Positions 1 to 37,847 of a stretch of 64,000 bases of DNA are shown one piece after another. This stretch comes from Actinomucor elegans (Eukaryota > Mucoromycota > Mucoromycetes > Mucorales > Mucoraceae). The notes beneath the pieces were generated by a model. It searched no databases, was not told the origin of the DNA, and worked only from the letters and a program-made list of their open reading frames with translations. The stretch lies in contig JAMSLZ010000007.1 of the NCBI GenBank assembly GCA_026027325.1, forward strand, positions 1,798,001 to 1,862,000. The letters are read 5' to 3'. Position 1 is the stretch's first letter, and each line of letters starts with the position of its first letter. Position numbers and translations under genes: made by a program.

Positions 1-1114
1 TATTATTATGGGTAAATTGTATAATAGTAGTGGTTTCCAGTCAATAATAGTATGGATTAATCCCTCCATATTGATGATTTATAATCAATATTATTATTAG
101 TTTTCTATCATATATTCACAATACACTACTAATAATATTATAGTCATTTTGGTTATTCAGATAATAATTTAATTGCTATTTTTTTTATTTATATAATATA
201 TAACTTCAACAGATATTACTCTAATACACACTAGCCTTCAATAGCTGAATGTACAATAACCAGCTTTCTATCACACACGAACAGTATTTAACTTACCTTA
301 TTGTCATACAAGTATAAAATAATTTATGTCCCACTGGCAAGTAACAGGTAAATGAATTAAGCAAATAACTGTATAAATAATGTCAGTTATCGTTGATGAA
401 ACAATATTTCAAGACTATATTTGAACTAACCTTTAGAAGAATGGCCCACGAGCTTGTATAATAGTATATTTTAATCATCTTTTCCTAAAGTAATGATTAG
501 ATTCTTGAATGAAACTCGCTATTGCTACAGACTTACCAACACTATATCAGACACAATCAATTATAATTCACTGGGCTACAGTTTTAATAGTCTTCGTCTT
601 GTATATATATACAACTAAATCTATTATAACAGTATTAGATTAATATACAAAGAAATTAATGGATTAGTAATCATTGCACTTACTTAATGGTTATTAGCTT
701 TAAAACTAATAGTAAAGGTTCAAAAGCCATATGGCATTACTGGCTATAAGTATTACTGAAGTGGTATAAGTATTTAAGAATACAAGTCAGTATAAGAACA
801 TAAGCAGTATGAATGACGACGTATTTATAGATAATTACGACATTAAGAACGAGGGAGATATTCGAAAGCTTGGAAAAAAAAACACAATTACAAGCTGACA
901 TTGAGGTTAATTCCTATTATACAGAAGCTTCAGTTAAAGTGTTGTGCGCAATAAGAGTGACAAATGTCAAGAAACCTTACGTTTAATGTGCCAATTTAGC
1001 AAACGAAAAAAAAGAAAGAAACTCAAGATTGGTGTAAAAAAGTTTTTCTTAATACTGAAAAGCCGCAGAAAAATGCTACGTCAGCTACTTAAACCAATAA
1101 AAAAACATCTATAT

Positions 1115-2197
1115 TTATTTCGTTTTTTTTGTATTTTTCTTAGAGCGTGGTTTACGCTTATTGGAATCCGCTTCTTTGGAACGATTGTCAGATCCAGCCT
1201 CCTCATCTTCACCAACGTCAGGTTGAACCGTAATGGCTTTTCTTTTCGTTGATGAGCGAGCAGAATGTAGATCCAACAAGCTAGTGATTGGAGATGCAAG
1301 ACCAACTGGAGCAACAGAAGTAGCTAGACGATCAACAAGGATATGCTGATTATCCACACTATTTGCATAACAAGCATATTAATAAAGATATAAAAACAGA
1401 AATAAAAAAGCATCTAACCTGAAGAACGATTCAATCTCATTGTCTTCAACAGATTCTTGATTTTGTTGACTTTCACCTTCTTCAGCAGAATTACTTCTGG
1501 TACGTACAGTCTTCTTGTTTTTGAGTGCTTCAGATAAAAGTAACTTGGCAGCCCACATCTCTACACAGAGATGCAGATGCAAGCCCACATCTAAAGCACG
1601 TTTCTCCAAAAGCAAAGCATAACGTTCTTGAATGCTGGTATCCTCTTCGCCAATTTCACTCCAAGTTTTACCAACAATATTTATATTTGCCCTTTCCATG
1701 TCTTTCAAGACATCTCTTGCCAAGTATTTCAACGTATTGTATTGCGGTTGAACATCATCATCGGTCAGTTCATTTTGTTGGCCTTTTATATACTTGAGGT
1801 GTTTCAAGAGGGCATACAACCTTAATGGTGCAGAAGGGGTGACATTTGTCTTGGTTGCCTTTTGTTGATAACGCACTTTTGCTTCTTCTAGCACTTTTGG
1901 GATTGACCGTTTACTACGTAAATTAGGATTCAAAGCATTTGCAATTGCTTCTCGTTCAGCTATATATGACAAGCTAAGAGGTTAATAAAACTGAATGTAG
2001 TAACATGCTTCAGATATGATTGTACCATCGTCAAGTGCTTGTTCAATTTCTTCGTTAGATGAAACCCTCGAAGCTTCTCGAGGAAATAGAGGTGCTAATA
2101 TTTGGATCAAATCTTGAATTAAACGACGGTTGATTAAGATTTCTTGTTCAATCTTCTCAAAGTAGACGCTCCAATTATTGTTGTTGTTGTTTGACAT
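1115..2197 (-). CDS. CACTA copy A accessory protein (ORF2, function unknown)
   Basis: My three-exon model is 2026-2197, 1419-1959 and 1115-1358 on the minus strand, which keeps one frame and gives 318 residues. The protein starts with a poly-Asn tract, then a Leu/Glu-rich middle that looks helical (AKLLLSEALKNKK), an acidic stretch, and a basic tail (KRKPRSKKNTKKTK) that could be a nuclear localisation signal. No catalytic motif is visible. The second intron has clear borders (CAG/GTTAGA, AAATAG). The first is uncertain: an in-frame TAA lies between exon 1 and exon 2 in both copies, and a 66-nt or 45-nt intron would each remove it. Placed divergently from the transposase, it occupies the position of a second CACTA protein such as plant TnpA, but homology is not shown. 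Confidence 0.6.
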
Positions 2198-2602
2198 AGC
2201 TATAAAGTAAATATATTATAAAGAAAAGTGATTGAATGATTTGAGCTATTTAACTGTTTTATAAGCGTACTTTACCATTTATCCATTAGTAATCCTTACT
2301 AATGTCCAAAGAGCTTTCTGGAAAGTAAGCTTACTGACAGGTATGACTGACTTGGAAAGGAATTAGCTTGATTAGAAATCATAAGGATCCATTAAAATAT
2401 ATTCGATATCTGAATAATCTGGAAGGCTGAGTAATATGAAAAGCCGATTAGTTCAAAGGATTCAACAGCCTAAAACAATGAATTACCATTGAGAACTCTG
2501 TCAATTGTAGACCAAGCAAACGTATTTAAGACCTGCTTTTTCTAAACAACAAAACCGCTATTCATTAATTCGATATATTTACTTGTTTTTACTTATCTTT
2601 AA
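2198..2602. promoter_or_regulatory. divergent promoter region of CACTA copy A
   Basis: These 405 bp separate the start codons of the accessory gene (minus) and the transposase (plus). The stretch has no ORF and should hold both promoters. I see no unambiguous TATA box. The same region is 30342-30746 in copy B. Confidence 0.5.
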
Positions 2603-2705
2603 ATGGGCAAAGTTTCCTCTTCTGCTACACCATATAAATATACTTGCGCTACTTGTTTGAGGCCATTCAAAACTGTTAAAGCTAGGAGTAATCACTATAG
2701 CCATA

Positions 2706-2926
2706 GATAAACATTTACAACTACTTAATATTTTTAACTTTCCTAAAAAATCAAGGCATAAATATAATGTTGCCTTTTTATCCATAAATAAAATGTTGGT
2801 TACTTGTTCTATTTTAGAATAAAATTTATTTATATTATTATTTGTATTCAAAAAAATCTATTATTTCCTAATTTTTTTATATATTGTACTATTTTGAACA
2901 TATTTCTGTAATACTAAATGTTCTTC
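2706..2926 (+). repeat. H1 left direct repeat (221 bp)
   Basis: Identical by eye to 4989-5209. It begins GATAAACATTTAC and ends ATGTTCTTC. The transposase stop codon lies only 11 bp inside its inner edge. The block CATAAATATAAT.TTGC.TTTT is shared with the H2 repeat, so the two repeat families are distant homologues. Confidence 0.93.
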
Positions 2927-2937
2927 TTATTAATTGA

Positions 2938-4374
2938 TTAATTATTTTCTATTGATTTCCAATAATTCAAAATAGTATCATGTGATGTAAAATCTTTTTC
3001 TTTTACCCATGAATTATGTTCTTTACCATACTTTTTCCATTTTACAAAATATTCATATAAGTTCTTTACTTTTTTGTGTTTAATTATATATTGTATTTCA
3101 TATATATTTTGATCATTATTACTAGTGATATCTTCCTCCATTTGATCCATAATATCTATATTCACTTCATTTATATTTAAATTATTTAAAAATTGATTTT
3201 GTAATGATTTTATATCAACGATATTTTCTATTTTATATTGTGTTTTTAATGTTACTTCTTTATTCATTTCAATATTATTTTTATAATAATAATCAAAATT
3301 ATCATTTAGCCATTTGTTGTAATGGGCATTTTCTTCAATTCCAAATAACTCTGTAAAATATTTTATGTTCAGTAATACTATTGCTAATTTTAGCTGTATA
3401 TTATATGTCTTATTATCTGTTATTCTAATCTTATTTTGTCCACTAAATCTTTTAAAAATACTACCTAATTCTGCAAAATATTTTTCTATTTTTGACCTTA
3501 ATCCACCTAATTCTTCATTGAATTTTTTTTCATCTATGGTTAATTCAACTCCTTTATCTTTTTTTATAGGATAGCAAAAATTTTTCAAGGATATATTAAA
3601 TCCAATATTACTAAATTTTTCTATAAATTCTTTTACTGTGTTTTCATATAATCCATCAAAACATATACAATCTATTTCATTATAAAACTTATTGATATTT
3701 ATGTCTAAAAGCATTTTATCATCAGTATTATTTCTACAAGGTAAGGAATCAGATATATAAACACATATTCTATTAATATCTATAATAAATTGTGTATTTA
3801 ATCCATTTCTTTTTAATTTATACGAGAATAACTCTTTTTTATCTAGATTAATATCTTGATATGTTATACGATTATGGTGACCATCAATTAGTAATGTTAC
3901 ATTATCTAACATCATTGGATTAAATTTCTTAGCACAAAGTAATCTCAATGTATGTGTAGAAAAACATTTTTCTAATTTATTATTTATCCATTTTTCCAAT
4001 AAATCATAATTATTTATATATAATGATTGATATAATTTATAAAAACTAGTAGATGGAATATACATTTCCATTTCATTTATAGATTTTCCATTTAATAAAT
4101 GTTCTAATAATATCAATACTTTATCTGCTGTTATATATGGACCTGGTAGTTTTATATTGTTACATAAATCTGTCAAAAATACAAATGGAGCAATACTTCC
4201 TAATTTAATATATATATTTTTTTTAATTCTATCAATATTTGGTATACTCGTTATTTTAGATCTATGATATTTCAATTCAACTTTATATATATATTCATTT
4301 TTCATAAATTTCCAATACCTATTGTAAATATTTCTGTATTCATTTTCAATTAATAAGTCTATATGAGTGTTCAT
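2938..4374 (-). CDS. H1 transposase: PIF/Harbinger-like DDE nuclease with C-terminal chromodomain
   Basis: 478 codons from ATG 4374. An upstream TTG at 4416 would add 14 residues. The candidate DDE triad is D164 (LLIDGHHNR), D240 (CICFDGLYE) and E297 (RSKIEKYFAELGSIFKRF). The last resembles the R..IE..F..LK.RF signature of the DDE_Tnp_4 (PIF/Harbinger, IS5-like) family. Residues about 425-475 (YIIKHKKVKNLYEYFVKWKK ... HNSWV) form a chromodomain, a histone methyl-lysine reader known from chromoviral integrases. The expected job is to cut and join H1 ends, with the chromodomain biasing the target site towards heterochromatin; this targeting is inference. The gene is intact and ends 11 bp from the left repeat. 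Its closest relative here is the H2 gene (35858-37300). Confidence 0.82.
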   Translation of the reverse strand: MNTHIDLLIENEYRNIYNRYWKFMKNEYIYKVELKYHRSKITSIPNIDRIKKNIYIKLGSIAPFVFLTDLCNNIKLPGPYITADKVLILLEHLLNGKSINEMEMYIPSTSFYKLYQSLYINNYDLLEKWINNKLEKCFSTHTLRLLCAKKFNPMMLDNVTLLIDGHHNRITYQDINLDKKELFSYKLKRNGLNTQFIIDINRICVYISDSLPCRNNTDDKMLLDININKFYNEIDCICFDGLYENTVKEFIEKFSNIGFNISLKNFCYPIKKDKGVELTIDEKKFNEELGGLRSKIEKYFAELGSIFKRFSGQNKIRITDNKTYNIQLKLAIVLLNIKYFTELFGIEENAHYNKWLNDNFDYYYKNNIEMNKEVTLKTQYKIENIVDIKSLQNQFLNNLNINEVNIDIMDQMEEDITSNNDQNIYEIQYIIKHKKVKNLYEYFVKWKKYGKEHNSWVKEKDFTSHDTILNYWKSIENN

Positions 4375-4408
4375 AAACAAATAAAATGATGTATTTTTAT
4401 ATAAAGAG

Positions 4409-4489
4409 AAATTCAATTTTTAATATTTTCTATATTTAATAAACTTTTATTTATATATGAAAATTCAATTTTTAATATTTTCTATATTT
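4409..4489. repeat. 29-bp direct duplication between the two H1 genes
   Basis: The 29 bp at 4409-4437 (AAATTCAATTTTTAATATTT and nine more) recur at 4461-4489, 52 bp apart. The right copy encodes the last codons of the small ORF; the left copy lies just upstream of the transposase ATG. It may be a duplicated promoter or processing signal, or slippage. Confidence 0.8.
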
Positions 4490-4833
4490 TCCAAGAACTT
4501 ATGATTTCTTTTTGCATAATCTAACCATGATTTAAAATTATAAATTTCTTTAATACTAACATATCCTTTTCTTAAACACCAGGATTTGAAATATTCATTT
4601 CTAACTTTTTCGTTATCATCTAAAATTGTTTTTATCACTAAATTGGCATGGATATTTGTATTGTTTTCACCAACATCATAGAAAGGACCACTATATAAAA
4701 TTTTATCAATATTTTTTATATTTCCAACCCATTGCAGTATTTTCTTGTTTAATATTTCGGATGATTTATTCTTGACATCTTTTTTTTCAGGATTTAGAGT
4801 TAAAACCACAGCATAATAATAGATTTTTTCCAT
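4465..4833 (-). CDS. H1 small ORF, unknown; faint HUH/Rep-like motif order
   Basis: 122 codons from ATG 4833, lying upstream of and co-directional with the transposase. I do not recognise the family. Three segments appear in the order and spacing of HUH Rep endonuclease motifs: VVLTLN near the N-terminus (motif I is usually FTLN-like), NIHANLVIK (motif II would be HUH; here the second His is Asn), and SWLDYAKRN near the C-terminus (motif III is a Tyr followed by Lys/Arg). A match this short may be chance. In Harbinger elements the second protein is normally Myb/SANT-like, which this does not resemble. H2 has no counterpart. Confidence 0.45.
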   Translation of the reverse strand: MEKIYYYAVVLTLNPEKKDVKNKSSEILNKKILQWVGNIKNIDKILYSGPFYDVGENNTNIHANLVIKTILDDNEKVRNEYFKSWCLRKGYVSIKEIYNFKSWLDYAKRNHKFLENIENIKN

Positions 4834-4988
4834 TAAATATAATATTGATGTTATTTTAAAAATAATTCTCAAATATTATAGATACTTTTATATTTTCCAA
4901 AATATCATGCCAAGAATTAGATGCCAAGGAAGTTGTTTTTAGATTTCTCAATGTGATTAAACGCAATGGAAGTCTAAAAATAGGACAA

Positions 4989-5209
4989 GATAAACATTTA
5001 CAACTACTTAATATTTTTAACTTTCCTAAAAAATCAAGGCATAAATATAATGTTGCCTTTTTATCCATAAATAAAATGTTGGTTACTTGTTCTATTTTAG
5101 AATAAAATTTATTTATATTATTATTTGTATTCAAAAAAATCTATTATTTCCTAATTTTTTTATATATTGTACTATTTTGAACATATTTCTGTAATACTAA
5201 ATGTTCTTC
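4989..5209 (+). repeat. H1 right direct repeat (221 bp)
   Basis: Identical by eye to 2706-2926 and in the same orientation. On the plus strand a stop-free run of 79 codons (4866-5102) crosses the inner boundary into this repeat and ends at TAA 5103. Its tail has RHKYNVAF, which the H2 repeat also encodes as KHKYNIAF. Confidence 0.93.
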
Positions 5210-8084
5210 ATAATCGTGATCATAGAAAACAAAGGGTCGTCCAAACGCAAGAAGCTAGCATTCCTGTCCAAGGTGAGTTAACAGATATATTACTAAAGCT
5301 TTTAATTTAACAATATACCTTGTTTGAAATAGAGCCTACTCCAATTGCTTACAACGTCAAATCCTCGGATCAAAACCTTTTCACCAATACGGAATTAAAT
5401 AGCATCCAATTGAGAGATATTTGCGACACGTATGGTATTCCTCGAGAGGCTCAAAGAGAACTTGTCTATCTAATGCGTACCATAATCAAAAACAATGAAG
5501 AGAGCCGTAAAACCGATGGATTGGGTATGTATCTATTCAAATAGAGTTAAAAAAAAAGTACTTATCAGCTTTTATTCCCATTATATATAGGTTACCTACC
5601 ATCCACTCTCATGTTCCCTGATACCTTGGATCGTACTCTTAAAGCAAAAACCAATATTCAATGTCATTTTCATGATGTCTGCGTCAATGGTTGCATGCTG
5701 TTTGAAAAGGAAGATATAGAGACTATTCAATGTAAAAACCCTGCTTGTAAAGAAAATCGCTTTGATGATCATGGTAAACCTCGTCGCTCTATGAAGATGC
5801 TTCCTATTGGTGAACAAGTCGCTCAAATGCTTGCGAATGCAAAGACAAGAGACTTGATGAAATACCGCTACAACTATAAATCAACTGACGGTGAATATAA
5901 AGATTACTTTGATGGTGCAGCATACAAGTACTTTAAGGATAATAGCATTCTGTTTTCCGGTGAAGATGATGTCGCAATGGTTCTTTTTGTCGATGGTTTC
6001 TGTACTAGCAAGAATCATAAAGGGGACAAGTTAACAATCATCCATCTCTTGAATATGAACATTCCCCCAGAATACCGCTACCAAGACGAATACATGCTTC
6101 AATTGGCGATCTTGCCAGGTCCAAACTACCCAAAGTACATGCATACCTTTTTAAAGCCTATTATTGATGAGTTTCATGCTCTGTCTACCAAAGGCATGCT
6201 TGTACAAAAGGATGGTGTAATTGTTTGTCAAGCTAAAGTCAACTTGGTGATGGCTACTGGTGATCTTCCTGCTGCAGCTGAGCTTGCAAATCATATTGGT
6301 CATATGGCTACGTTTGGTTGCCGTATTTGTCGTGTCCAAGCTGAACGTCATGATTATCATAATTGTTTTTTAACGATCGACAATGAGATCAGAAGCAGAA
6401 ACGATTTCATTTCCCCAGATGCAGCGAATGTAAGTACTATAATCAGCATTAATCTTTACAAGTTTTTAACATTTCTTTTTCTTTTTACCTCATAGAGCTA
6501 CAGTATCAAGTCTGCAACACCATTTGCAATACTTCCCAGTTTTACTGGCGCTACTTTTTTTGGTTTAGACGAAATGCATCTTCTCGGACAAGGTATCGCT
6601 CAACACGTATTCAATATGCTGACAGTCGACATGGGTAAAGAGTACAATGCAGCAAGAAAAACTCGATATAAGCCCAATGAAGATGAATTGAGTGATGCCC
6701 GATTGAAGTCTGCTGATGAATGGCCGTATACTTTCTATATTCCAAAATTATCGCTCATCAAAATTGGTAAACTTGTTGAAGCTTCTAGAGCCACTGTACC
6801 GACATCCTTTTCATCCAAATGGGAAGATCCAATTATCAAGAGTGGTGGCAAACGTGCTGTTGACTGGATTGATATTTTCTTATATATGATTCCCACCTTG
6901 TTCGTTCCTGAATTGATTCAAGAATCCGCTAAGAAACCATTGATTCATCTGACAAAAGCTGTCGCATTGGCTCTTAAATGGGAACTTTCTATTGAAGACC
7001 TTATTCTGATGGAAAGGTAAATATATTTTTTTTTTGTACTCATAAATCTAGTTTACTTACATACTTTCCAAAGATATATCAAAGAATGGCAAGAATTTTT
7101 GTTGGCAGAAATCAAGGCAAAGCGTATTCATTCCGGTGTATTCAAGCCTGTTCAACACTACCTTTCGCATATAGTCTATATGATCAAACAACAAGGTGTG
7201 TTGAGAGCATATTCCGCCCGATCAATGGAAAGAAGCATCGGAAAATACAAAAAGCTCATCAAGTCAAAGGTTGATGCTGGCGCAAACGCTGGTAATATCT
7301 TGGAAAGACTCATAACGCGTAATCATATAAACAGCCAGACTTGGGATGTTCATACTGAGCTTGACCTGATCACTCCTCGAAAATACAGCGAATCCACTTT
7401 CAGGAATAACCCTTCTGGTGATGCTAGTGATCCACAATTATGGGCTCCCTTTAGTAATATTTCAGTGGATACTCTTCCCTTTGGTGTCTCCACTCAAACT
7501 TTTTTGAAGGCGCTATTGCATTACTATCGCCGTACTGAAGCAAATGGTGTAAATATTGCTGAAATTGATTCGTTGAATAGTATTTCCATCGCTGGTCGTG
7601 CCTGGGCATATGGCAATGTATATACGTCTACCATGTATAAAAGCCATATAAATGAATATCGTCGAGGAAACAATTACGTGATGATCACTGCCAGCTACTT
7701 GAAGTAAGTAATTAGCTCAAGAACAAAAACCTCTTTGATTAACCAACCTTTGTTAATAGTCGAAATAATTCCATTCGTGAAAGCTGGTTCATTGGTTCTA
7801 TCGTTTTCTTTTTCGAGCATTCATTCAATGGTAGACCACAGTATTTGGCTTTGGTTGATTTAGCGAAAAAAAATGCAACTACCAAATATGACAAGACTAT
7901 TGCTTTGGTTGAGCTGCACAGTAGCGGTGCACACAGTTACGCTGTCTGTCGGTTTGAAGATATTGTTGCCAGTGTAGGTCTTGTGCGTTCAAGTGAATCT
8001 AATGAGAAAGAGTTCAAGATCATCTCTCATCATATATTTAAACAAGATCTAGAGCAAAATGCTGGCATATTAAGTCGTTTGTAA

Positions 8085-9723
8085 ATAGCATGAAGACAAG
8101 AGCAAAAAGCGTTTTATTTTGAAATAAAATTGTTCTCTGAATTGATTATGTATTTAAACCACCGAAAATAATATAAAGCTTCCCTCCAAAAGGACTTCAT
8201 CATAATATAGCAAAAGTAAAATAGGTATTTACACTTTCTGTAGTAGATATAAACTATAGATAATTTAACTCGTTTTTATATATCATGTTATTAATTCGAG
8301 AGAAAGGTATTAGCAATCTTGCAACAGAATGTAAAAACATTTCTTAATCAAAAATTTAACCCATTTCCCTGATGTTTAAGAAATTATTTCATAATATCAG
8401 AAATATAGAACCAGGATAACCCAAGTTATACAGTTCTATATTCATCATTCAATAATGTTAATTGACTATTTAGTTGCTCCAGTTAATCTTTAAAACCAAA
8501 TGTAAAATATGATTAATGCTCTTGTTTATCTTTATAGTAAAATTAGTTTATTATCAAGCAATGCGGATTAATTTTCCAACAGACAGCAAAAATGTTCATC
8601 GATTGTAGTTTTCTAGCACCTAAAAAAACGTGCATGTTTTTGAAGCTTTCGATCGTCATTAAGAATTCTATCATAATCATCAATTACTCGAAAGTCCAAA
8701 AACGAACGCGTTTTTTTGTAGTTTGAGAAGTGGATATATGATTTTGACAATAAATCATCTAGTTAAATAACCGCCTAGCAATAATGACTAAGATTACTGG
8801 CAATTAATAATCGCTACTTGACCTATTTTTTTTTTACACAATAATTTATCTCTTTTTTTACGCAATATATTTCTTTTTTTTTACGCAATGTATTTCTTTT
8901 TTTTTACGCAATGTATTTCTTTTTTTTTTTAACGCAATGTATTTTCTTTTTTTCTTTCTTTCTTTCTTTATTCTATAATTTTACTAAACATAAAATTGAG
9001 TAAATTAGACACTTAATGGCAGCTCATTCTTAATGTCATTCAGCATTTTAAATACACAGCTATTAGCCAAAGGCTAAATCACGGCAATGAAAGTGCTCAG
9101 CTTATTAAATGGAACTAGCGATTCGTTCTTGTTTCCAAAAGAGTAATTTACAAGAGAATTTTTTGCAACCTGACCTGTATAAGAGACTTTTCAACGAATA
9201 ATAAACGCATTTGAAAGACAATTGTTCAACATTATTTTTGACAAACGTTGAAATTAAACGTTTCTAGGAATTTACATAAAAGATCGTTGAAACGAAAAGC
9301 AGAGTTCATTTTAGTAAATAAAATAAACGAGGATTATGTTGTTGCGTACAAGCATCAGAATTTCATGTACTCATTTATAAGAAGTTTGCAAGATTTGGCT
9401 TTCATCGGCAAAAGACAAGAATACATAAAAATTGTTTGCAAATAAAATGGAGTTCAGGCTTTTCTTTCTTATTGTCAATTTATGTTATAATATTGACTAA
9501 ACCCATAACATTATTGTCTGCTTTCCACTAATATTAGGAGTAACCACTAATAAATGAGCAAAGCACTGTTAATTGCGCAGCCATAGAAAATAATTGCTCT
9601 AATTTCATTGGTTCGCAGATTATTATTAGTAGGTAAATCTATAGTATTAGTAGGTAAATGATAATAAAATCGTCGTTTTACCACATAATATTATGGGTAG
9701 CACACAATATTTTCGCCATAGTG
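8085..9723. other. non-coding right arm of CACTA copy A
   Basis: No convincing gene. The only ORF (9248-9445) starts at TTG. It holds a minisatellite (8826-8960) and, near the end, copies of a subterminal motif related to TAATATTATGGGTA at about 9530, 9640 and 9690. Such arrays are transposase or TnpA binding sites in characterised CACTA elements; that role is assumed here. Confidence 0.6.
8826..8960 (+). repeat. T-rich minisatellite, about 23-bp unit
   Basis: Four to five units of ACGCAATGTATTTC followed by a T-run of 8-10. The same array lies in copy B at 34461-34610, where the T-runs differ by single bases. These are the only length differences found between the two CACTA copies. Confidence 0.85.
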
Positions 9724-9794
9724 TGTTAATAAAGCACAGTCTCAAAAAGTACTCTTTTTAGTCTTATTTATTATTTCACTGTGCAAACACAACA
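9724..9794 (+). repeat. gypsy 1 5' LTR remnant (3' 71 bp)
   Basis: Matches 14815-14885 of the 3' LTR. It starts TGTTAATAAAGCACAG directly after the CACTA terminus and ends CAAACACAACA. The LTR promoter with its TATAAATA box has been separated from the gene by more than 9 kb of inserted DNA. Confidence 0.92.
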
Positions 9795-9797
9795 TTT

Positions 9798-9807
9798 TAC
9801 TTTTTGA
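9798..9807 (+). other. candidate self-priming primer-binding site of gypsy 1
   Basis: TACTTTTTGA begins 3 nt after the LTR end and is the exact complement of TCAAAAAGTA in the LTR (14833-14842). No tRNA-type TGG primer site follows the LTR. The Tf1/sushi lineage primes reverse transcription from its own mRNA 5' end. The sister element has TACTTTTGA at 16035-16043, one T shorter. Confidence 0.45.
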
Positions 9808-9831
9808 ATTCAACGCTTTATTACACTTACT

Positions 9832-12800
9832 ATGTCTGCTCAAGCCCCTGTTACTGATTCTGGTGTCTCTACCATGGATGGTGTCATTTCTGGTCCCATT
9901 GGTGAAGTTGAGCAAGCTTTCTCCGAGAATCAATCTACTATTGATTCAACCCCTGATGATGCCTCTGATGTAGTTCAAGCATTAACTGAAAACTCTAGAA
10001 TGCTGTTTACTCGTTTGGCTGCCCTGGTTCGTCAAGATCCTAACTCTCCTGCTGCCAACGAGGCATATGTGGCCTACAAATCTGCTGAAGAAAAGCTAGC
10101 CCACTTTAAACAAGCCCAAAACTCTTACCTCAAGATTATGGGTGAATCTTCATCCGCTTCTGGCCCTGTCTCTGCATCCCATCGCCCTGCGATTGTACCT
10201 GCTGGTCTTCCTTTCCTTCAATTGAGAGGTGAACATCAATGGAAGCCTCGTGAAGACATGTATGACTCGGCTCATGACTTTTGCGTTTGCTTTGAGAAGG
10301 TACTCCGTGCCCATGTTCAAGATCTAGATGCTAATTGGGAGCGCTTGTTGCCTATGTGCTTGAACAACGAGCAAAACTCTTGGTTTGAAGAAGCATTGTT
10401 ATCTAAGGGTATGTCTTGGTCTGCTGCTCGTTCCTCTTTGTTGGATCACTTCGATACTCCGTATCGTAAGTTCTTGTTGATGGCCAAAGTTGGTTCTATA
10501 CGTCAAGAAAGGTATGAAACCAACCGTGAATATGCAAGCCGGTTCCAAAAGTTGCGTCGTGAAGCTGGTATGGAAGACAACACGCAGCTAGCTGTCACTT
10601 TCTTTGTGTCTCTGCGTGAGGAGGTTCGTGGCCGGTCCCAACAGGCTATTGCTTGTCATTTTGGCAAGAAATTACCTAACTCCATTGCTGAGCTCATTGA
10701 TTTGGTGATCGCTTCAGGTGATGACTCGTCTTTCTTGTCATTGAATGGCAAACGTCCCCGAGTGGACTCTGACTCTGGTTCTTTGGACAACACTACACCT
10801 AATAAGGCCAATTATAAGGTCAATAAAGGTTTTATTCCGTCTCCTTCTCATAAGAATAGCAAGTTTCATGGTCGGGGATCTGGATCTGGTTCTAGTTCTG
10901 GTTCCAATAATAAACTCTGCCATTATTGTAAGCGAGTATGGAACTATGGACATCGCTGTAACGAATTTATAGAGGCTAAGAGTCATGTGAACTCTAGTGA
11001 ACCTCGTTTCCAGCCCATAAGTCGCATGTCTGAGCGAACAAACGCTGGAAATATCGATATTAGTGAACAAGTTAATTCGCAGTTAAATCGGTGTGCCTTA
11101 GAATGTAAGTATTCATCTAAAAATACAATAACTAAGGATTTCAAAAATATTAACGATTCTATTACGTTTCCTATTCTCGTCATTAGAAGGAACTACATAC
11201 CGGAGCGTCTGGTGTCTATACTAGATACGGGTGCAAATCATAGCGCTATTAATAAAGACGTTGTTAAAAAATTAAACCTACCTATACTTCCAATTTTAAA
11301 TGATGACATCAAGCATATTAAATTAGCTGACTCTAAATCTACTGTAAAAAGAATTGGCACTACAGAAGTCACCTTAAGATGCAATAACAAAACACTTACT
11401 CGTAAACTGGAAGTTATGGAACTTACAAATAATTACGATTTAAGTATTGGCATTGACTTAATGACTTCTTTTGGAATTGGTATAACTGGACTTCCTATAA
11501 AGTATGATGAATCCAATTCTGAACATAATAAACTTGACTCCATAAGACGATATAACAATGACAGTGAATTGTTAGAACAAGTCAAACAAGAACTCAATGA
11601 GCTTGGCGATAATCCTACTGGAACCACAGAGGAATATGAACAAGCAATGAGTTATATTCAACCTTTCATAGCAGCAAATGAGGAAAGAACAAAAGGAAAG
11701 TTCTGCACTATTCCCGAAAGCGTGGTATACATCAATACACCACCTAACGTAACTGCTTATCGTAAGCCATATCCTGTACCAATTACATATCATGACGTTG
11801 TAGATAAGCAAATAAATGAATGGTTGAATGAAGGTTTTATAAAACGTGCTACTGGTCATTCTGAATGGAATTGTCCTATAACAGTAGTTCCAAAAACCAA
11901 TGGTAAAGGCGAAATAACAGGACATCGAGTCTGTCATGATCCTAGACACGTTAATGCACTATTGCAATCGATTGATCGTATGCCATTACCTATTATCAAT
12001 GAATTATTTGAAGAGCTTAAAGGCGCATCCATTTACAGTACTTTGGATCTGAAGTCTGCTTTCAATTCATTATTGCTATATCCTGATCATGCACATAAAC
12101 TTAATTTCACTTGGCGTGGAATTCAGTATACTCCAATCGGCACTGTGTTTGGTGTTAAGCATGTATCAAGTGTCATGCAAAGGACAATGAGTATTGCTCT
12201 TGAAGGTATGCCATTCGCTAGATGCTTTGTAGATGATGTAGTAATTAAAAGTAACTCTATCGAGGAACATAAGCATCACTTAAGCCTAGTAATTAATAAA
12301 TTGACAGAAGTCAATCTTAAACTGCAACCCAAAAAATGTAAGTTTTTCCAGAATAAGATCAATTTACTAGGTTTCACGATTGCTCCTCGTGGCATATCGA
12401 TGGATCGTCGCAAGTTGATCAACGTTCTCGAGTTTCCTCGTCCACGTACTGGCAAAGACATCATGAGATACACTGGATTGATTTCTTATCTGAGATCTTT
12501 AATTCCAAAAGTATCCACTTTAATGGCTCCTCTTGATGCATTACGCAATGAAAAATCACTGGATAAGATCTGGAATATTACACATGAAAATGCTTTTAAC
12601 AATCTAAAGAAAGCTTTATTAAATGATACAGTGATTTCATATCCTGACTTAAATCATCCTTTCTGTGTAGCTACGGATGCATCCAACGTAGGAGTAGGTG
12701 CTGTCCTTTACCAGATCATAAACGGTGAAATCAAATACCTATCGATGATGGCTAAAAGCCTTTCCTCAAGTGAACGCAATTATTCCGCTACTAAACGTGA

Positions 12801-14556: not shown

Positions 14557-14564
14557 TCATACCT

Positions 14565-14576
14565 GGGAGGGGATAA
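14565..14576 (+). other. gypsy 1 polypurine tract
   Basis: GGGAGGGGATAA lies immediately upstream of the 3' LTR, the expected position for plus-strand priming. Gypsy 2 has the same tract at 20798-20809. Confidence 0.85.
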
Positions 14577-14885
14577 TGTTATAGAATAGAGACTATTGTA
14601 TGAATAATAACTTATTCATTATCAATCTCATCTTTACGGAAGCACTTATGAGTTGATATGTTTAAGATTCATGTCTCAGATGGATATATATCTAGAACAT
14701 AGACCTATAACATAACATCTTCTTAAATCCTCTTCACCACACTTAGATAGACGATTAGTATAAATAGGTTTAGTTTAGACATAGTTATAGGATCTTCATC
14801 TTCATATTCATCTTTGTTAATAAAGCACAGTCTCAAAAAGTACTCTTTTTAGTCTTATTTATTATTTCACTGTGCAAACACAACA
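14577..14885 (+). repeat. gypsy 1 3' LTR (309 bp)
   Basis: Starts TGTTATAG and ends CACAACA. It contains a TATAAATA box near 14760 and AATAAA near 14819. It is almost identical to the gypsy 2 LTRs, with a few substitutions. The following five bases are ATTTA; the matching left target copy is outside the window. Confidence 0.95.
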
Positions 14886-15722: not shown

Positions 15723-16031
15723 TGTTATAGAATAGAGACTATTGTATGAATAATAACTTATTCATTATCAATCTCATCTTTACGGAAGCACTTATGAGTT
15801 GATATGTTTAAGATTCATGTCTCAGATGGATATATATCTAGAACATAGACCTATAACATAACATCTTCTTAAATCCTCTTCACCACACTTAGATAGACGA
15901 TTAGTATAAATAGGTTTAGTTTAGACATAGTTATAGGATCTTCATCTTTATATTCATCTTTGTTAATAAAGCACAGTCTCAAAAAGTACTCTTTTTAGTC
16001 TTCTTTATTATTTCACTGTGCAAACACAACA
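15723..16031 (+). repeat. gypsy 2 5' LTR
   Basis: 309 bp, TGTTATAG to CACAACA. A TATAAATA box (about 15904) and AATAAA (about 15965) are present. It is the promoter and RNA start of the element. Confidence 0.95.
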
Positions 16032-16065
16032 TTTTACTTTTGAATTCACGCTTTATTACACTTAC

Positions 16066-20789: not shown

Positions 20790-20809
20790 TCATACCTGGG
20801 AGGGGATAA

Positions 20810-21118
20810 TGTTATAGAATAGAGACTATTGTATGAATAATAACTTATTCATTATCAATCTCATCTTTACGGAAGCACTTATGAGTTGATATGTTTAAGA
20901 TTCATGTCTCAGATGGATATATATCTAGAACATAGACCTATAACATAACATCTTCTTAAATCCTCTTCACCACACTTAGATAGACGATTAGTATAAATAG
21001 GTTTAGTTTAGACATAGTTATAGGATCTTCATCTTTATATTCATCTTTGTTAATAAAGCACAGTCTCAAAAAGTACTCTTTTTAGTCTTCTTTATTATTT
21101 CACTGTGCAAACACAACA
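20810..21118 (+). repeat. gypsy 2 3' LTR
   Basis: 309 bp, same termini as the 5' LTR. It is preceded by the polypurine tract and followed by target copy CTTGT. Confidence 0.95.
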
Positions 21119-27957: not shown

Positions 27958-28160
27958 CACTATGGCGAAAATATTGTCGGTTTTTTGCCCAAAAGTTGAT
28001 AATATTAGGGGTAAAATCGACTATAGTTCTGCTAATAATTATTGTCAATTTCTAGGCAGTGTTTTTTCGGCGGTTGATAATATTAGTGACTCTTATTCGA
28101 TAATATTATGGGTAAATACTATAGTATTAGGGGTTTTCCTTCAATATTATTATGGGTAAA
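27958..28160 (+). repeat. CACTA-B left end and subterminal repeats
   Basis: The 20-bp terminal repeat is followed by four variants of a motif near TAATATTATGGGTAAA: 27998-28016, 28099-28117, about 28122-28139 and 28142-28160. Related copies stand near the right end (about 35165-35345). In studied CACTA elements such subterminal arrays bind the element's own protein. Confidence 0.75.
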
Positions 28161-30341: not shown

Positions 30342-30746
30342 AGCTATAAAGTAAATATATTATAAAGAAAAGTGATTGAATGATTTGAGCTATTTAACTG
30401 TTTTATAAGCGTACTTTACCATTTATCCATTAGTAATCCTTACTAATGTCCAAAGAGCTTTCTGGAAAGTAAGCTTACTGACAGGTATGACTGACTTGGA
30501 AAGGAATTAGCTTGATTAGAAATCATAAGGATCCATTAAAATATATTCGATATCTGAATAATCTGGAAGGCTGAGTAATATGAAAAGCCGATTAGTTCAA
30601 AGGATTCAACAGCCTAAAACAATGAATTACCATTGAGAACTCTGTCAATTGTAGACCAAGCAAACGTATTTAAGACCTGCTTTTTCTAAACAACAAAACC
30701 GCTATTCATTAATTCGATATATTTACTTGTTTTTACTTATCTTTAA
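30342..30746. promoter_or_regulatory. divergent promoter region of CACTA-B
   Basis: 405 bp between two start codons, no ORF. Identical to 2198-2602. Confidence 0.5.
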
Positions 30747-33721
30747 ATGGGCAAAGTTTCCTCTTCTGCTACACCATATAAATATACTTGCGCTACTTGT
30801 TTGAGGCCATTCAAAACTGTTAAAGCTAGGAGTAATCACTATAGCCATAATCGTGATCATAGAAAACAAAGGGTCGTCCAAACGCAAGAAGCTAGCATTC
30901 CTGTCCAAGGTGAGTTAACAGATATATTACTAAAGCTTTTAATTTAACAATATACCTTGTTTGAAATAGAGCCTACTCCAATTGCTTACAACGTCAAATC
31001 CTCGGATCAAAACCTTTTCACCAATACGGAATTAAATAGCATCCAATTGAGAGATATTTGCGACACGTATGGTATTCCTCGAGAGGCTCAAAGAGAACTT
31101 GTCTATCTAATGCGTACCATAATCAAAAACAATGAAGAGAGCCGTAAAACCGATGGATTGGGTATGTATCTATTCAAATAGAGTTAAAAAAAAAGTACTT
31201 ATCAGCTTTTATTCCCATTATATATAGGTTACCTACCATCCACTCTCATGTTCCCTGATACCTTGGATCGTACTCTTAAAGCAAAAACCAATATTCAATG
31301 TCATTTTCATGATGTCTGCGTCAATGGTTGCATGCTGTTTGAAAAGGAAGATATAGAGACTATTCAATGTAAAAACCCTGCTTGTAAAGAAAATCGCTTT
31401 GATGATCATGGTAAACCTCGTCGCTCTATGAAGATGCTTCCTATTGGTGAACAAGTCGCTCAAATGCTTGCGAATGCAAAGACAAGAGACTTGATGAAAT
31501 ACCGCTACAACTATAAATCAACTGACGGTGAATATAAAGATTACTTTGATGGTGCAGCATACAAGTACTTTAAGGATAATAGCATTCTGTTTTCCGGTGA
31601 AGATGATGTCGCAATGGTTCTTTTTGTCGATGGTTTCTGTACTAGCAAGAATCATAAAGGGGACAAGTTAACAATCATCCATCTCTTGAATATGAACATT
31701 CCCCCAGAATACCGCTACCAAGACGAATACATGCTTCAATTGGCGATCTTGCCAGGTCCAAACTACCCAAAGTACATGCATACCTTTTTAAAGCCTATTA
31801 TTGATGAGTTTCATGCTCTGTCTACCAAAGGCATGCTTGTACAAAAGGATGGTGTAATTGTTTGTCAAGCTAAAGTCAACTTGGTGATGGCTACTGGTGA
31901 TCTTCCTGCTGCAGCTGAGCTTGCAAATCATATTGGTCATATGGCTACGTTTGGTTGCCGTATTTGTCGTGTCCAAGCTGAACGTCATGATTATCATAAT
32001 TGTTTTTTAACGATCGACAATGAGATCAGAAGCAGAAACGATTTCATTTCCCCAGATGCAGCGAATGTAAGTACTATAATCAGCATTAATCTTTACAAGT
32101 TTTTAACATTTCTTTTTCTTTTTACCTCATAGAGCTACAGTATCAAGTCTGCAACACCATTTGCAATACTTCCCAGTTTTACTGGCGCTACTTTTTTTGG
32201 TTTAGACGAAATGCATCTTCTCGGACAAGGTATCGCTCAACACGTATTCAATATGCTGACAGTCGACATGGGTAAAGAGTACAATGCAGCAAGAAAAACT
32301 CGATATAAGCCCAATGAAGATGAATTGAGTGATGCCCGATTGAAGTCTGCTGATGAATGGCCGTATACTTTCTATATTCCAAAATTATCGCTCATCAAAA
32401 TTGGTAAACTTGTTGAAGCTTCTAGAGCCACTGTACCGACATCCTTTTCATCCAAATGGGAAGATCCAATTATCAAGAGTGGTGGCAAACGTGCTGTTGA
32501 CTGGATTGATATTTTCTTATATATGATTCCCACCTTGTTCGTTCCTGAATTGATTCAAGAATCCGCTAAGAAACCATTGATTCATCTGACAAAAGCTGTC
32601 GCATTGGCTCTTAAATGGGAACTTTCTATTGAAGACCTTATTCTGATGGAAAGGTAAATATATTTTTTTTTTGTACTCATAAATCTAGTTTACTTACATA
32701 CTTTCCAAAGATATATCAAAGAATGGCAAGAATTTTTGTTGGCAGAAATCAAGGCAAAGCGTATTCATTCCGGTGTATTCAAGCCTGTTCAACACTACCT
32801 TTCGCATATAGTCTATATGATCAAACAACAAGGTGTGTTGAGAGCATATTCCGCCCGATCAATGGAAAGAAGCATCGGAAAATACAAAAAGCTCATCAAG
32901 TCAAAGGTTGATGCTGGCGCAAACGCTGGTAATATCTTGGAAAGACTCATAACGCGTAATCATATAAACAGCCAGACTTGGGATGTTCATACTGAGCTTG
33001 ACCTGATCACTCCTCGAAAATACAGCGAATCCACTTTCAGGAATAACCCTTCTGGTGATGCTAGTGATCCACAATTATGGGCTCCCTTTAGTAATATTTC
33101 AGTGGATACTCTTCCCTTTGGTGTCTCCACTCAAACTTTTTTGAAGGCGCTATTGCATTACTATCGCCGTACTGAAGCAAATGGTGTAAATATTGCTGAA
33201 ATTGATTCGTTGAATAGTATTTCCATCGCTGGTCGTGCCTGGGCATATGGCAATGTATATACGTCTACCATGTATAAAAGCCATATAAATGAATATCGTC
33301 GAGGAAACAATTACGTGATGATCACTGCCAGCTACTTGAAGTAAGTAATTAGCTCAAGAACAAAAACCTCTTTGATTAACCAACCTTTGTTAATAGTCGA
33401 AATAATTCCATTCGTGAAAGCTGGTTCATTGGTTCTATCGTTTTCTTTTTCGAGCATTCATTCAATGGTAGACCACAGTATTTGGCTTTGGTTGATTTAG
33501 CGAAAAAAAATGCAACTACCAAATATGACAAGACTATTGCTTTGGTTGAGCTGCACAGTAGCGGTGCACACAGTTACGCTGTCTGTCGGTTTGAAGATAT
33601 TGTTGCCAGTGTAGGTCTTGTGCGTTCAAGTGAATCTAATGAGAAAGAGTTCAAGATCATCTCTCATCATATATTTAAACAAGATCTAGAGCAAAATGCT
33701 GGCATATTAAGTCGTTTGTAA
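30747..33721 (+). CDS. CACTA-B transposase (Tnp2/Transposase_21 family)
   Basis: Six exons: 30747-30909, 30970-31161, 31228-32066, 32133-32653, 32711-33340, 33397-33721; 2670 nt, 889 residues. Introns are 55-66 nt with GTRAGT-like donors and TAG or AAG acceptors, and all phases agree. Residues about 14-33 form a Cys2His2-like finger (CATC ... HYSHNRDH). The Tnp2 core includes FVDGF (about 250), TGDLPA (about 342), a Cys pair (GCRICR) and GLDEMHLLGQGI (about 420). It should recognise the CACTA ends and catalyse cut-and-paste transposition. It is intact here; the identical gene in copy A is broken by H1. Confidence 0.92.
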
Positions 33722-35338: not shown

Positions 35339-35362
35339 ACAATATTTTCGCCATAGTGTATA

Positions 35363-35445
35363 AATTATAAAATATATGGATATATTAAAAAAAAATAGGA
35401 CATATACAATAGATTTAAAAGATATATTAATTGTAGATATCCGTC
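35363..35445 (+). repeat. H2 left direct repeat, inner part
   Basis: Last 83 bp of the repeat after the CACTA-B insertion; 35359-35362 is the duplicated TATA. It ends GATATCCGTC at 35445 and matches 37471-37553. Confidence 0.92.
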
Positions 35446-35459
35446 TACTATAACCATAG

Positions 35460-35857: not shown

Positions 35858-37300
35858 ATGGATAATATTAATAATGTTAAGGATACTTTATTAATGGAGT
35901 ATCAGATTCTAACAAATGATTATTGGAAATTTTTAAATTATGGTTGGCCAGAGATTGAACAAAAAAAATATCACACTAAAAAGATTATATCTATTAAAAA
36001 GATCAAAGAAATTAAAAAGATTTTATTAGAAAAGTTAGGAATAATACCTGTTTATTTCTTCCTAGTTATATTATTTGGAGATAGAGATTATAGAGGACCA
36101 TATAATAATATAGAAAAAGGCTTATTGATATTATATTTTATAGTAGAGAATATATCAATTGAAGATATGGATGATTATATATCAAAAAGTACTTTTCATC
36201 AAATATACAGACAATTTTATTCATCAGATAGAATGTTAAAATTAAATAAGATTTTAAGTTTTTCTTTACAAAACATGTTTTCAAATATAAAAATTAGACT
36301 TTTAAATGGAATGATAGAGAATCCAGATTTGTTTAATCAAGTAACAATACATTTAGACGGCCATGATAAAAGAGGTATGGTATATGGTGCAGAAGATAAA
36401 TCCATATATTATAGTTACAAACTTAAAAAAAATGGGTTTAGAACACAAGTTGCAATAGATACAAATGGTATGGTATTATTTGTATCAGACAGTCAACCAT
36501 GTAGTACTAATAATGATGGATCTATGCTTATAAATATGAATATTGAAAATAAACTAAATTTGATGGATTGTATTGCATTAGATGGAGGATATAGCCTATA
36601 CGTAGATAATATAATAAATAGTTCTGATCTAAATGACTATAACTTCGTATATCCTATCAGAAAAGATAAAAATATAAACTTAAATGAAATTGAAATAAAT
36701 TATAACGATCAATTTGGAAGTTTTCGGTCTAAAATGGAAAAAACTTTCTCAGATTTGGGATGTATCTTTAAAAGATTAAATAACAAAAAACCTTTTTTAA
36801 CTACTAATATAAATATATATAATATTCAACTAAAAATTGCATGTGTCCTTTTTAATTTAAAAAAATATATTAAACTAAACAATATAGAACATAGTGATTT
36901 TCATTCATATTGGATTAATGATAGCTTTGATTTTAAATACAAAAATGATATTTTGAATAATAATGAAAATTATAAATCACTTCCAAAGTTAAATGAAAGA
37001 ATAAACAATTTAGATAAAATGAAATTATTACAGCAACAATTTTTAGGATTAGAATTATCAAATATTGCTCATTTTAAAAATAATAATATTTATAATAATG
37101 AGAAAATGGACTTGGAAATAGATATAGATAATAATGAAAGTTATGAAATTGAAACTATTTTGGATCATAAAGGGTTAATAGTCGAAGATAGTTATTACCT
37201 TGTGAAATGGCAAAACTACAGTGATGAGGATAATTCATGGATACATTACAGTAAATTTAATAGTTTTGATTGTATTAATATATATTGGAATAGTAAGTAA
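35858..37300 (+). CDS. H2 transposase: PIF/Harbinger-like DDE nuclease with C-terminal chromodomain
   Basis: 480 codons from ATG 35858; the frame is open back to 35786 and includes a TTG at 35828 whose following residues (NLSQYK) resemble those after the TTG of H1 (NFSLYK). The candidate catalytic residues are D167 (HLDGHDKR), D242 (CIALDGGY) and E294 (FRSKMEKTFSDLGCIFKRL), the DDE_Tnp_4 arrangement. The C-terminal 50 residues are a chromodomain (YEIETILDHK, YYLVKWQNYSDEDNSWI, then YW). The reading frame is intact and very AT-rich. It differs clearly from H1 at most positions, so the two are separate families. Confidence 0.84.
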   Translation: MDNINNVKDTLLMEYQILTNDYWKFLNYGWPEIEQKKYHTKKIISIKKIKEIKKILLEKLGIIPVYFFLVILFGDRDYRGPYNNIEKGLLILYFIVENISIEDMDDYISKSTFHQIYRQFYSSDRMLKLNKILSFSLQNMFSNIKIRLLNGMIENPDLFNQVTIHLDGHDKRGMVYGAEDKSIYYSYKLKKNGFRTQVAIDTNGMVLFVSDSQPCSTNNDGSMLINMNIENKLNLMDCIALDGGYSLYVDNIINSSDLNDYNFVYPIRKDKNINLNEIEINYNDQFGSFRSKMEKTFSDLGCIFKRLNNKKPFLTTNINIYNIQLKIACVLFNLKKYIKLNNIEHSDFHSYWINDSFDFKYKNDILNNNENYKSLPKLNERINNLDKMKLLQQQFLGLELSNIAHFKNNNIYNNEKMDLEIDIDNNESYEIETILDHKGLIVEDSYYLVKWQNYSDEDNSWIHYSKFNSFDCINIYWNSK

Positions 37301-37321
37301 CTAATTTAAAATGTTATAGAA

Positions 37322-37553
37322 GACGGACATCTTGTTTCATATAAATTTGGTACGTATATTAGGAGAAAGCATAAATATAATATTGCTTTTTCATGCAAAA
37401 TGGAACAGTTGCCTTCTTGATAATGTTTATTATACTTAATAATAATTTTAATTCATGAAAAAAAGTTATAAATTATAAAATATATGGATATATTAAAAAA
37501 AAATAGGACATATACAATAGATTTAAAAGATATATTAATTGTAGATATCCGTC
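37322..37553 (+). repeat. H2 right direct repeat (232 bp, intact)
   Basis: Identical by eye to the split left repeat. It serves as the empty site for the CACTA-B insertion. From its first base it encodes a 32-codon frame ending TGA, with RRKHKYNIAF similar to the tail encoded in the H1 repeat. Confidence 0.94.
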
Positions 37554-37847
37554 TTTATTTTAATTTTCCTATTCATAAAGAACGTCCCATTGTTTTGGAA
37601 CATGTTTTAAATTTCTTCGATAGCTCAATTTAAAATAATTTTATGCGACGCTAAGTAATGACGAATTTTGAAAAATCAAAAAATCAAAATTTCTCAAATT
37701 CGCCTTAGCTCCGTAGTTTTAAATAGAGTTCGCAGTAAAGGAAAACATATAGGAAAAAAGGCCAAAGTTTTAGCCCTCTATTGATACTAACATCAACCGC
37801 ATAGTTTTATTTTAGACAGCTGTGTAAAGAGAAAAAGGTTAATTTAT

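What the first reader, a model, noticed from the sequence alone, without database searches (positions are those of the whole stretch)
2706..5209. DDE transposon bounded by long identical direct repeats (H1), an LTR-like layout without reverse transcriptase
The insertion is defined exactly by the uninterrupted CACTA copy. Its two 221-bp ends are identical and direct, each with short imperfect inverted termini, and the host carries a 3-bp duplication (ATA). PIF/Harbinger-like elements normally have only short inverted repeats. Long direct repeats around a DDE transposase recall composite transposons (two mobile units around a gene) or an element whose ends are copied during movement. H2 has the same layout with diverged sequence, so the layout is inherited. 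I know of no described eukaryotic DDE family built this way, but could not search.
Basis: partly seen in the sequence, partly recalled or inferred. Interest (0 to 1): 0.92.

Follow-up and report, generated by a model that had tools for sequence, protein, structure and literature searches.

The report
DNA transposon with LTR-like direct repeats
A fungal jumping gene that moves as DNA carries identical repeats at both ends, as retroviruses do, and the two repeats evolve together although it has no reverse transcriptase; a similar layout has been described in animals for a different transposon group.

Summary
Window 2706-5209 is a 2,504-bp DNA transposon: two identical 221-bp direct repeats (LTDRs), each with short inverted termini, around a DDE_Tnp_4 + chromodomain transposase and a small second ORF, with one outer 3-bp TSD. 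In the 36.5-Mb Mucor-like genome I counted 96 H1 LTDRs: 40 left, 40 right, one shared in a tandem dimer, 15 solo. TSDs flank 33/37 monomers, 1/1 dimer, 13/15 solos. Eleven of 12 related families examined keep an LTDR pair (H2's left copy is truncated); pairs are 99.3-100% identical, whereas LTDRs of different families mostly do not align. In one family four substitutions agree between both LTDRs in 11/11 elements: concerted evolution. This is a second case, in a PIF/Harbinger-like lineage of a fungus. Added here: LTDR homogenisation, a C|NNN|G target preference, and a possibly HUH/Rep-like ORF2 that tracks a covarying LTDR stem-loop, suggesting a one-LTDR intermediate pasted in by the DDE enzyme. 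ORF2 has no profile match and its fold could not be tested. Anatomy is shown; mechanism is inferred.

The parts
2703..2705 (.). TSD ATA, left copy
   Evidence: empty site at 30846-30849
2706..2926 (+). left LTDR, 221 bp, with TIRs GATAAACATTTA...TAAATGTTCTTC
   Evidence: 100% identical to 4989-5209
2753..2776 (.). stem-loop in left LTDR, AAGGCA(TAAATATAATGT)TGCCTT; candidate ORF2 (Rep) nick site
   Evidence: function inferred
2938..4374 (-). transposase: DDE_Tnp_4 (putative catalytic D178, D254, E311, numbered from the TTG at 4416) + C-terminal chromodomain; first ATG at 4374
   Evidence: catalytic assignment by reading the alignment
4465..4833 (-). ORF2, 122 aa from ATG, HUH/Rep-like motifs (VLTL, HAN, YAKR)
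   Evidence: no significant Pfam or PDB match
4989..5209 (+). right LTDR, 221 bp
5036..5059 (.). stem-loop in right LTDR
   Evidence: identical LTDR
5210..5212 (.). TSD ATA, right copy
30846..30849 (.). empty target site in the second copy of the segment (CATA)
35355..35446 (+). H2: truncated left LTDR (last 92 bp)
35858..37300 (+). H2 transposase (37% identical to H1)
37321..37554 (+). H2: right LTDR, 234 bp, AGACGGACATCT...AGATATCCGTCT, with stem-loop AAAGCA(TAAATATAATAT)TGCTTT

Best explanation
H1 is a young, probably active composite-like (LTDR) DNA transposon of a PIF/Harbinger-like (DDE_Tnp_4) lineage with a C-terminal chromodomain. SHOWN: anatomy, outer 3-bp TSD, C|NNN|G target preference, copy classes (monomer, solo, dimer), LTDR layout in the 12 families examined, homogenised LTDR pairs. 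INFERRED: the mobile intermediate carries only one LTDR plus INT (a circle or concatemer). The transposase nicks the 3' ends at the two TIRs of that single LTDR, one per strand, so the LTDR is a 221-nt donor-side stagger. Both 3' ends join a target with a 3-bp stagger, and gap fill-in yields two identical LTDRs plus the TSD. The one-LTDR intermediate arises by LTDR-LTDR recombination or, in ORF2-bearing families, by rolling-circle copy-out by the HUH-like ORF2 from the stem-loop of one LTDR to that of the next. Solo LTDRs and dimers are recombination by-products.
For: 96 LTDRs: 40 left, 40 right, 1 shared, 15 solo. TSD in 33/37 monomers, 1/1 dimer, 13/15 solos. C before the TSD in 34/45 and G after it in 23/45 TSD-bearing distinct insertions. 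LTDR pairs: 0 substitutions in H1, F29, F30, F31, F32, F34, F37, F115, F116 and F18/33 (286/287, one gap); 1 in F117. Four diagnostic substitutions agree in left and right LTDR of 11/11 F29 elements, 3 of one type and 8 of the other. 15 of 19 H1 copies identical over all 2,504 bp; 31/37 monomers have identical LTDR pairs. The stem-loop is in 3 of 3 ORF2-bearing families and, at the same threshold, in 1 of 8 ORF2-less ones (H2).
Against: No circle, concatemer or LTDR-LTDR junction was seen; an assembly may not show them. Occasional gene conversion between LTDRs could also give concerted evolution, and H1 copies are so young that H1 alone says nothing about homogenisation. LTDR families without ORF2 have the same layout, so ORF2 is not required, at least in cis. 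4 of 37 monomers and 2 of 15 solos lack a clean 3-bp TSD, as do 2 of 11 F29 elements, and none was found for F18/33 in L018. One array (L036) has LTDRs only 82% alike; it is a chimera of two LTDR types. ORF2 has no significant Pfam, PHROG or PDB match; its profile against one plasmid Rep is not significant (hhalign Prob 0.2 of 100, E 0.3); the Pfam Viral_Rep model found nothing in the genome, though its controls were silent too. The hairpin folds weakly (z -1.4 to +0.1).
Confidence: 0.55

Rival explanations
1. Plain cut-and-paste by the outer TIRs, with LTDRs kept alike only by host recombination (gene conversion, unequal exchange), in the way proposed for KolobokP multimers. LTDRs are not regenerated at each insertion.
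For: Solo LTDRs with TSD (13/15) and a TSD-flanked tandem dimer sharing an LTDR are what LTDR recombination gives. A monomer whose flanks match two different insertions (L088/L089) and a chimeric H2-type/L115-type array (L036) indicate LTDR-mediated exchange.
Against: No mosaic (left of one subtype, right of the other) among 11 F29 elements. At most one substitution per LTDR pair in 11 families, while LTDRs of different families mostly do not align, so conversion would have to outpace mutation in every family.
Confidence: 0.33
2. Composite of two MITE-like units that happen to flank a transposase gene; each LTDR moves on its own.
For: Each LTDR has its own TIRs; 15 solos, 13 with TSD. KolobokP LTDRs appear to be excised alone in one clam family (PMC9587614).
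Against: No inner TSDs; 82 of 82 INT ends found retain an LTDR; paired layout in 11 of 12 families and concerted pairs.
Confidence: 0.04
3. Non-autonomous LTR retroelement (copied by the host's Gypsy reverse transcriptase) that carries a DDE gene as cargo.
For: LTR-like layout, identical pairs, solos, dimer; Gypsy chromoviruses sit beside it in the window.
Against: TSD is 3 bp with C|NNN|G, whereas a Gypsy copy in the window has 309-bp TG...CA LTRs and a 5-bp TSD CTTGT. LTDR ends carry TIRs that vary with the family. By reading only, neither inner LTDR edge shows a tRNA-type primer site (no script was run for it).
Confidence: 0.03
4. ORF2 is not an HUH nuclease but a DNA-binding or other accessory protein, and the stem-loop is its binding or regulatory site. 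(This concerns ORF2 only and can be true together with the others.)
For: No significant profile match; the second HUH histidine is Asn in 19/19; the protein is only about 120 aa.
Against: UUTU in 17 of the 18 members that cover it (the other reads VLSI), H-x-N in 19/19, Y-x-x-R/K in 19/19, H-to-Y spacing 44-46 and an Asp 8-9 residues before the His in 19/19. The loop is more conserved than the covarying stem, as expected of a nick site.
Confidence: 0.38

Closest known systems
KolobokP DNA transposons (Kojima & Bao 2022, PMC9587614)
   Same: LTDR-INT-LTDR, LTDRs with own short TIRs, solo LTDRs and (LTDR-INT)n-LTDR multimers flanked by TSD, DDE transposase plus a small accessory gene
   Different: Kolobok superfamily in animals, LTDR about 450 or 660 bp, His-Me finger nuclease, some LTDRs excised alone. 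Here: DDE_Tnp_4 + chromodomain, fungus, LTDR about 220-400 bp, HUH-like ORF2 in a subset, no LTDR-less INT end found, LTDR homogenisation shown.
PHIS superfamily: PIF/Harbinger, ISL2EU, Spy, Pangu, Nuwa (PMC4482050, passages)
   Same: 3-bp TSD, termini starting with G or A; NuwaII's C|TNA|G target resembles C|NNN|G, and 19 of 45 TSDs fit Pangu's ANT; DDE_Tnp_4 as the Pfam family of PHIS transposases is recalled
   Different: long direct repeats, C-terminal chromodomain, no Myb/SANT partner seen in H1
Bacterial composite transposons and IS26-type translocatable units (as described in PMC9587614)
   Same: directly repeated ends bounded by inverted repeats; one-repeat circular unit
   Different: repeats here are non-coding, and the transposase lies inside
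LTR retrotransposons
   Same: identical terminal direct repeats, solo repeats, tandem sharing
   Different: no reverse transcriptase, TIRs, 3-bp TSD
HUH Rep proteins of rolling-circle replicons (PMC6668415, PMC5714925, passages) and their stem-loop origins (recalled)
   Same: UUTU / H-U-(N) / Yxx(R/K) motif order; stem-loop with conserved loop
   Different: second His is Asn, mostly YxxR, no helicase, no significant profile match

Membership tests
KolobokP | LTDRs with own TIRs around INT, outer TSD, solos and multimers | tested here: met
KolobokP | Kolobok transposase | tested here: not met
   Pfam gives DDE_Tnp_4 in 31/32 and Chromo in 32/32 members of A2; no comparison with a Kolobok profile was run
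KolobokP | His-Me finger nuclease | tested here: not met
   no such Pfam match in H1's two proteins or in 19 ORF2 sequences
PHIS (PIF/Harbinger-like) | DDE_Tnp_4-type transposase (link to PHIS recalled) | tested here: met
   placement inside PHIS by tree not done
PHIS (PIF/Harbinger-like) | 3-bp TSD | tested here: met
   33/37 monomers; not TWA-restricted, most common AAT, ATA, ATT
PHIS (PIF/Harbinger-like) | simple TIR-only ends (recalled) | tested here: not met
   LTDRs in 12 of 12 families examined, one of them truncated
PHIS (PIF/Harbinger-like) | Myb/SANT partner protein | tested here: not met
   H1's only other ORF has no Myb match
LTR retrotransposon | reverse transcriptase in the element | tested here: not met
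   H1 encodes transposase and ORF2 only
HUH endonuclease | motif I UUTU | tested here: met
   17 of 18 members covering it
HUH endonuclease | motif II HUH | tested here: not met
   H-x-N in 19/19; second His absent in 19/19
HUH endonuclease | motif III YxxK | tested here: inconclusive
   YxxK in 5/19, YxxR in 14/19
HUH endonuclease | HUH fold | not testable with these tools

The most novel reading that the evidence does not exclude
H1 is an integrated 1.1-mer of a rolling-circle replicon pasted into chromosomes by a DDE transposase. The HUH-like ORF2 nicks the loop in one LTDR, copies LTDR+INT out up to the next LTDR's loop, and closes a one-LTDR circle, leaving the donor intact. The transposase then integrates the circle, with the LTDR as a 221-nt staggered end, regenerating both LTDRs. 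It would be a two-engine (HUH + DDE) copy-out/paste-in transposon.
Probability: 0.33. Interest if true: 0.92.

Novelty: new variant of a known kind. Interest (0 to 1): 0.74.

Why it matters
Long direct ends on a DDE transposon were reported as unlike any other when KolobokP was described. Finding the layout again in another transposase family and kingdom suggests either convergence or a general route. The concerted LTDRs give a testable prediction: both repeats of each new copy descend from one. If the ORF2/stem-loop module is a rolling-circle origin, a DDE element would combine two transposition engines. 26 copies with a full-length transposase at 100% reported identity and 15 of 19 elements identical over their whole length suggest recent activity, so the question can be put to experiment.

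Tried and rejected
Two-MITE composite: rejected (no inner TSD; 82/82 INT ends found carry an LTDR). Retroelement in trans: rejected (3-bp C|NNN|G TSD against the 5-bp TSD of a Gypsy copy in the window; TIRs). Complementation between the H2 family (transposase present, no ORF2) and the L115 family (ORF2 present, transposase core missing): dropped, because ORF2 of L115 has a premature stop (intact relatives such as P0007 exist). Relatives outside eukaryotes: none confirmed in viral contigs with either alignment or in plasmids with the transposase; in prokaryote genomes one 44-residue match in the chromodomain. Taking L033 as LTDR-less was wrong: with the nested H1 taken out of its relative in L018 the pair appears. 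In one search the row 'within H2R' is a self-comparison and is ignored. ORF2 on the transposase tree needs two changes, but with two ORF2 rows this holds in 500 of 500 shuffles and tests nothing.
Full report
OBSERVATION. The window carries 221-bp identical direct repeats at 2706-2926 and 4989-5209, outer TSD ATA, and an empty site at 30846-30849 in a second copy of the surrounding CACTA-bearing segment (7.2 kb, 99.96-100% identical). INT holds two genes on the minus strand: a transposase (DDE_Tnp_4 E 2.1e-8, Chromo E 9.3e-8) and ORF2, 122 aa from its ATG. The HP1-type cage aromatics (recalled) correspond by eye to Tyr439/Trp460/Tyr463, at least 90% conserved in the 32 sequences of A2.

HOST. 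G000 has 36,533,736 bases in 27 contigs. The only hits with a named organism are from Mucor flavus (64% and 55% identity), so the host is Mucor-like; the species is not established.

CENSUS OF H1. The transposase search gave 91 matches (a lower bound), of which 26 are full-length at 100% reported identity. Pattern scans found 96 LTDR starts (up to 2 mismatches) and 98 LTDR ends (up to 1); more diverged LTDRs would be missed. Pairing gives 96 LTDRs: 40 left, 40 right, one shared by two INTs, 15 solo; two of the 98 ends have no start. All 41 left and all 41 right INT ends found abut an LTDR. I read both flanks of 53 insertions: 37 monomers (three of them with an unusual INT length, 2,224 or 8,233 bp), the dimer and 15 solos; two left and two right LTDRs of truncated or interrupted elements were not scored. 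The 3-bp TSD is present in 33/37, 1/1 and 13/15. The failures: L013 (a 4-bp AATA match), L027, L060/061 (TA repeat), L088/089 (left flank like L018, right flank like L060/061, so probably a recombinant), and solos L046 and L051. The dimer in C22 (L053/L023) has ACT on both sides. After collapsing two duplicates, 45 distinct TSD-bearing insertions show C immediately before the TSD in 34 (25/32 full or dimer, 9/13 solo) and G immediately after in 23 (19/32, 4/13); p 1e-17 and 2e-7 against window composition. 19 of 45 TSDs fit ANT (p 6e-8). Of 19 monomers compared in full, 15 are identical over 2,504 bp (L020 and the dimer L023 were left out). LTDR pairs are identical in 31 of 37 monomers (15/18, 16/19); of the six others, three differ by one or two bases and three were not counted base by base.

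OTHER FAMILIES. I examined 12 families of this transposase including H1 (the others 34-66% identical to H1); not every family was fetched. Eleven have a paired LTDR: H1 221 bp; F29 402/399; F30 220; F31 239; F32 223; F34 292; F37 288; F115 234; F116 260/259; F117 263; F18/33 287/286. L118 (405/404 bp) is a second F29 copy. H2 has an intact right LTDR and a truncated left one. Substitutions within pairs: 0 in ten families, 1 in F117; L118 shows 1, which by the printed ends appears to lie in the flanking bases that the alignment took in; other differences are gaps. The array L036, with LTDRs 82% alike, joins an H2-type and an L115-type LTDR and is left out as a chimera. LTDRs of different families mostly do not align beyond blocks of about 20-40 bp (F18/33 was not in that comparison); the exception is H2 and L115 (87% over 180 bp). 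TSDs of 3 bp were read by eye, choosing the register where a neighbouring base allowed it, for F30, F31, F32, F34, F37 and F115, F116, F117, L118. By script they are present in 9 of 11 F29 copies: L029 fits 3 or 4 bp by register, and C24 fails, its right flank being the same as that of C10. For F18/33 in L018 I found no TSD.

CONCERTED EVOLUTION. In F29 I fetched both LTDRs of 11 copies. Four substitution sites split the copies 3 to 8, and left and right LTDR agree at each site in 11 of 11. All remaining variable columns are gaps in some copies. So substitutions reach both LTDRs. This is what regeneration from one LTDR predicts; conversion is not excluded.

ORF2 AND THE STEM-LOOP. A profile search gave 18 database relatives of ORF2, and this genome holds at least two diverged groups. 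In 19 aligned sequences (P0001, 99% like the window, was left out) motif I reads U-U-T-U in 17 of the 18 that cover it, motif II H-x-N in 19/19, motif III Y-x-x-R in 14 and Y-x-x-K in 5. HUH enzymes are described by UUTU, HUH and YxxK (passages of PMC6668415), so motif II is not met as written and motif III is loosened. No significant profile match supports it, although the non-significant hhalign alignment does lay motifs I and II of the two proteins over each other. I put the HUH reading at about 0.6. The one block of over 30 bp shared by the H1 and H2/L115 LTDRs is a stem-loop: H1 AAGGCA(TAAATATAATGT)TGCCTT, H2 AAAGCA(TAAATATAATAT)TGCTTT, L115 AAAACA(TAAATATAATGT)TGTTTT; the stem covaries and the loop nearly stays. 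F37, the other ORF2-bearing family, has GAAGGT(AAGCAAAGTGCA)ACCTTC: same geometry, different letters. With stem at least 6, loop 12 and at least one G-C, the hairpin is in these four and in none of the seven ORF2-less families F29, F30, F31, F32, F34, F116, F117; H2 itself has no ORF2. F18/33 showed none at the stricter setting. F29 and F116 have other hairpins (stem/loop 7/7 and 6/11). Shuffles give 0.065-0.23 per LTDR at the looser and 0.005-0.055 at the stricter setting, so F37 alone is weak; the covarying block is the stronger part. The core CATAAATATAATRTTG occurs 198 times in the genome and 0 times in the reversed control (only the first 100 places were listed, and I did not check that all lie in LTDRs). 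ORF2 and hairpin do not follow the transposase: H1 and L115 are 65% identical in ORF2 but 37-44% in transposase segments, while F116, 56-66% identical to H1 in transposase, has no ORF2 match and no such hairpin. L115 is degenerate: transposase core missing, ORF2 with a premature stop, yet its ORF2 type occurs at 16 places, so it was presumably moved in trans.

MECHANISM. The simplest account of identical pairs, outer TSD, absence of LTDR-less INT ends and tandem sharing is an intermediate with one LTDR, opened by transposase nicks at its two TIRs on opposite strands and filled in after strand transfer. How the intermediate forms is open: LTDR recombination, or rolling-circle copy-out in ORF2-bearing families. 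All of this paragraph is inference.

PRIOR ART. KolobokP (PMC9587614; I read the abstract, parts 1-3 of 6 of the text and the first of two parts of the Discussion) defines the architecture and proposes transposition, unequal crossover and circular units; a term search of its main text for homogenisation wording found none. It says the LTDR layout was unlike any other DNA transposon. The PHIS, TET/JBP-transposon, Mucor RNAi and two rolling-circle papers were seen as passages only. In the listings of ten searches (1 to 20 papers listed each) I saw no report of this layout in PHIS elements or in Mucor; subscription papers and Repbase were not searchable.

The odds of the ORF2 rival went from 0.35 to 0.38; the others are unchanged.

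Noticed in passing
window 1-9724 and 28145-35359: A 7.2-kb segment with a CACTA (Transposase_21) gene is duplicated at 99.96-100% identity; H1 lies in only one copy, so it probably came in after the duplication, and H2's truncated left LTDR lies at the breakpoint of the second copy.
   Followed up: partly
window 9724-14885 and 15961-21118: Two Gypsy chromovirus stretches 96.7% identical over 5.2 kb; the second element has 309-bp LTRs (15723-16031, 20810-21118) and TSD CTTGT; the first has a 1,574-aa frame.
   Followed up: partly
window 24208-25230: 340-aa ORF that looks like a Tc1/mariner-type transposase (by reading; no family search run).
   Followed up: no
L036 (C21:675600-679500): Chimeric array: one LTDR of H2 type, the other of L115 type, with parts of two different transposase genes; suggests LTDR-mediated exchange between families.
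   Followed up: partly
L018 356-2763 (H1 removed): A family with LTDRs of about 287 bp bearing 67-bp TIRs, into whose right LTDR an H1 copy has inserted.
   Followed up: partly
window 4394-4437 and 4446-4489: 44-bp imperfect direct repeat (86%) around the boundary between transposase and ORF2.
   Followed up: no
window 8849-8954: Four spaced copies (23, 23, 26 bp apart) of a unit with ACGCAATGTATTT and T-runs.
   Followed up: no
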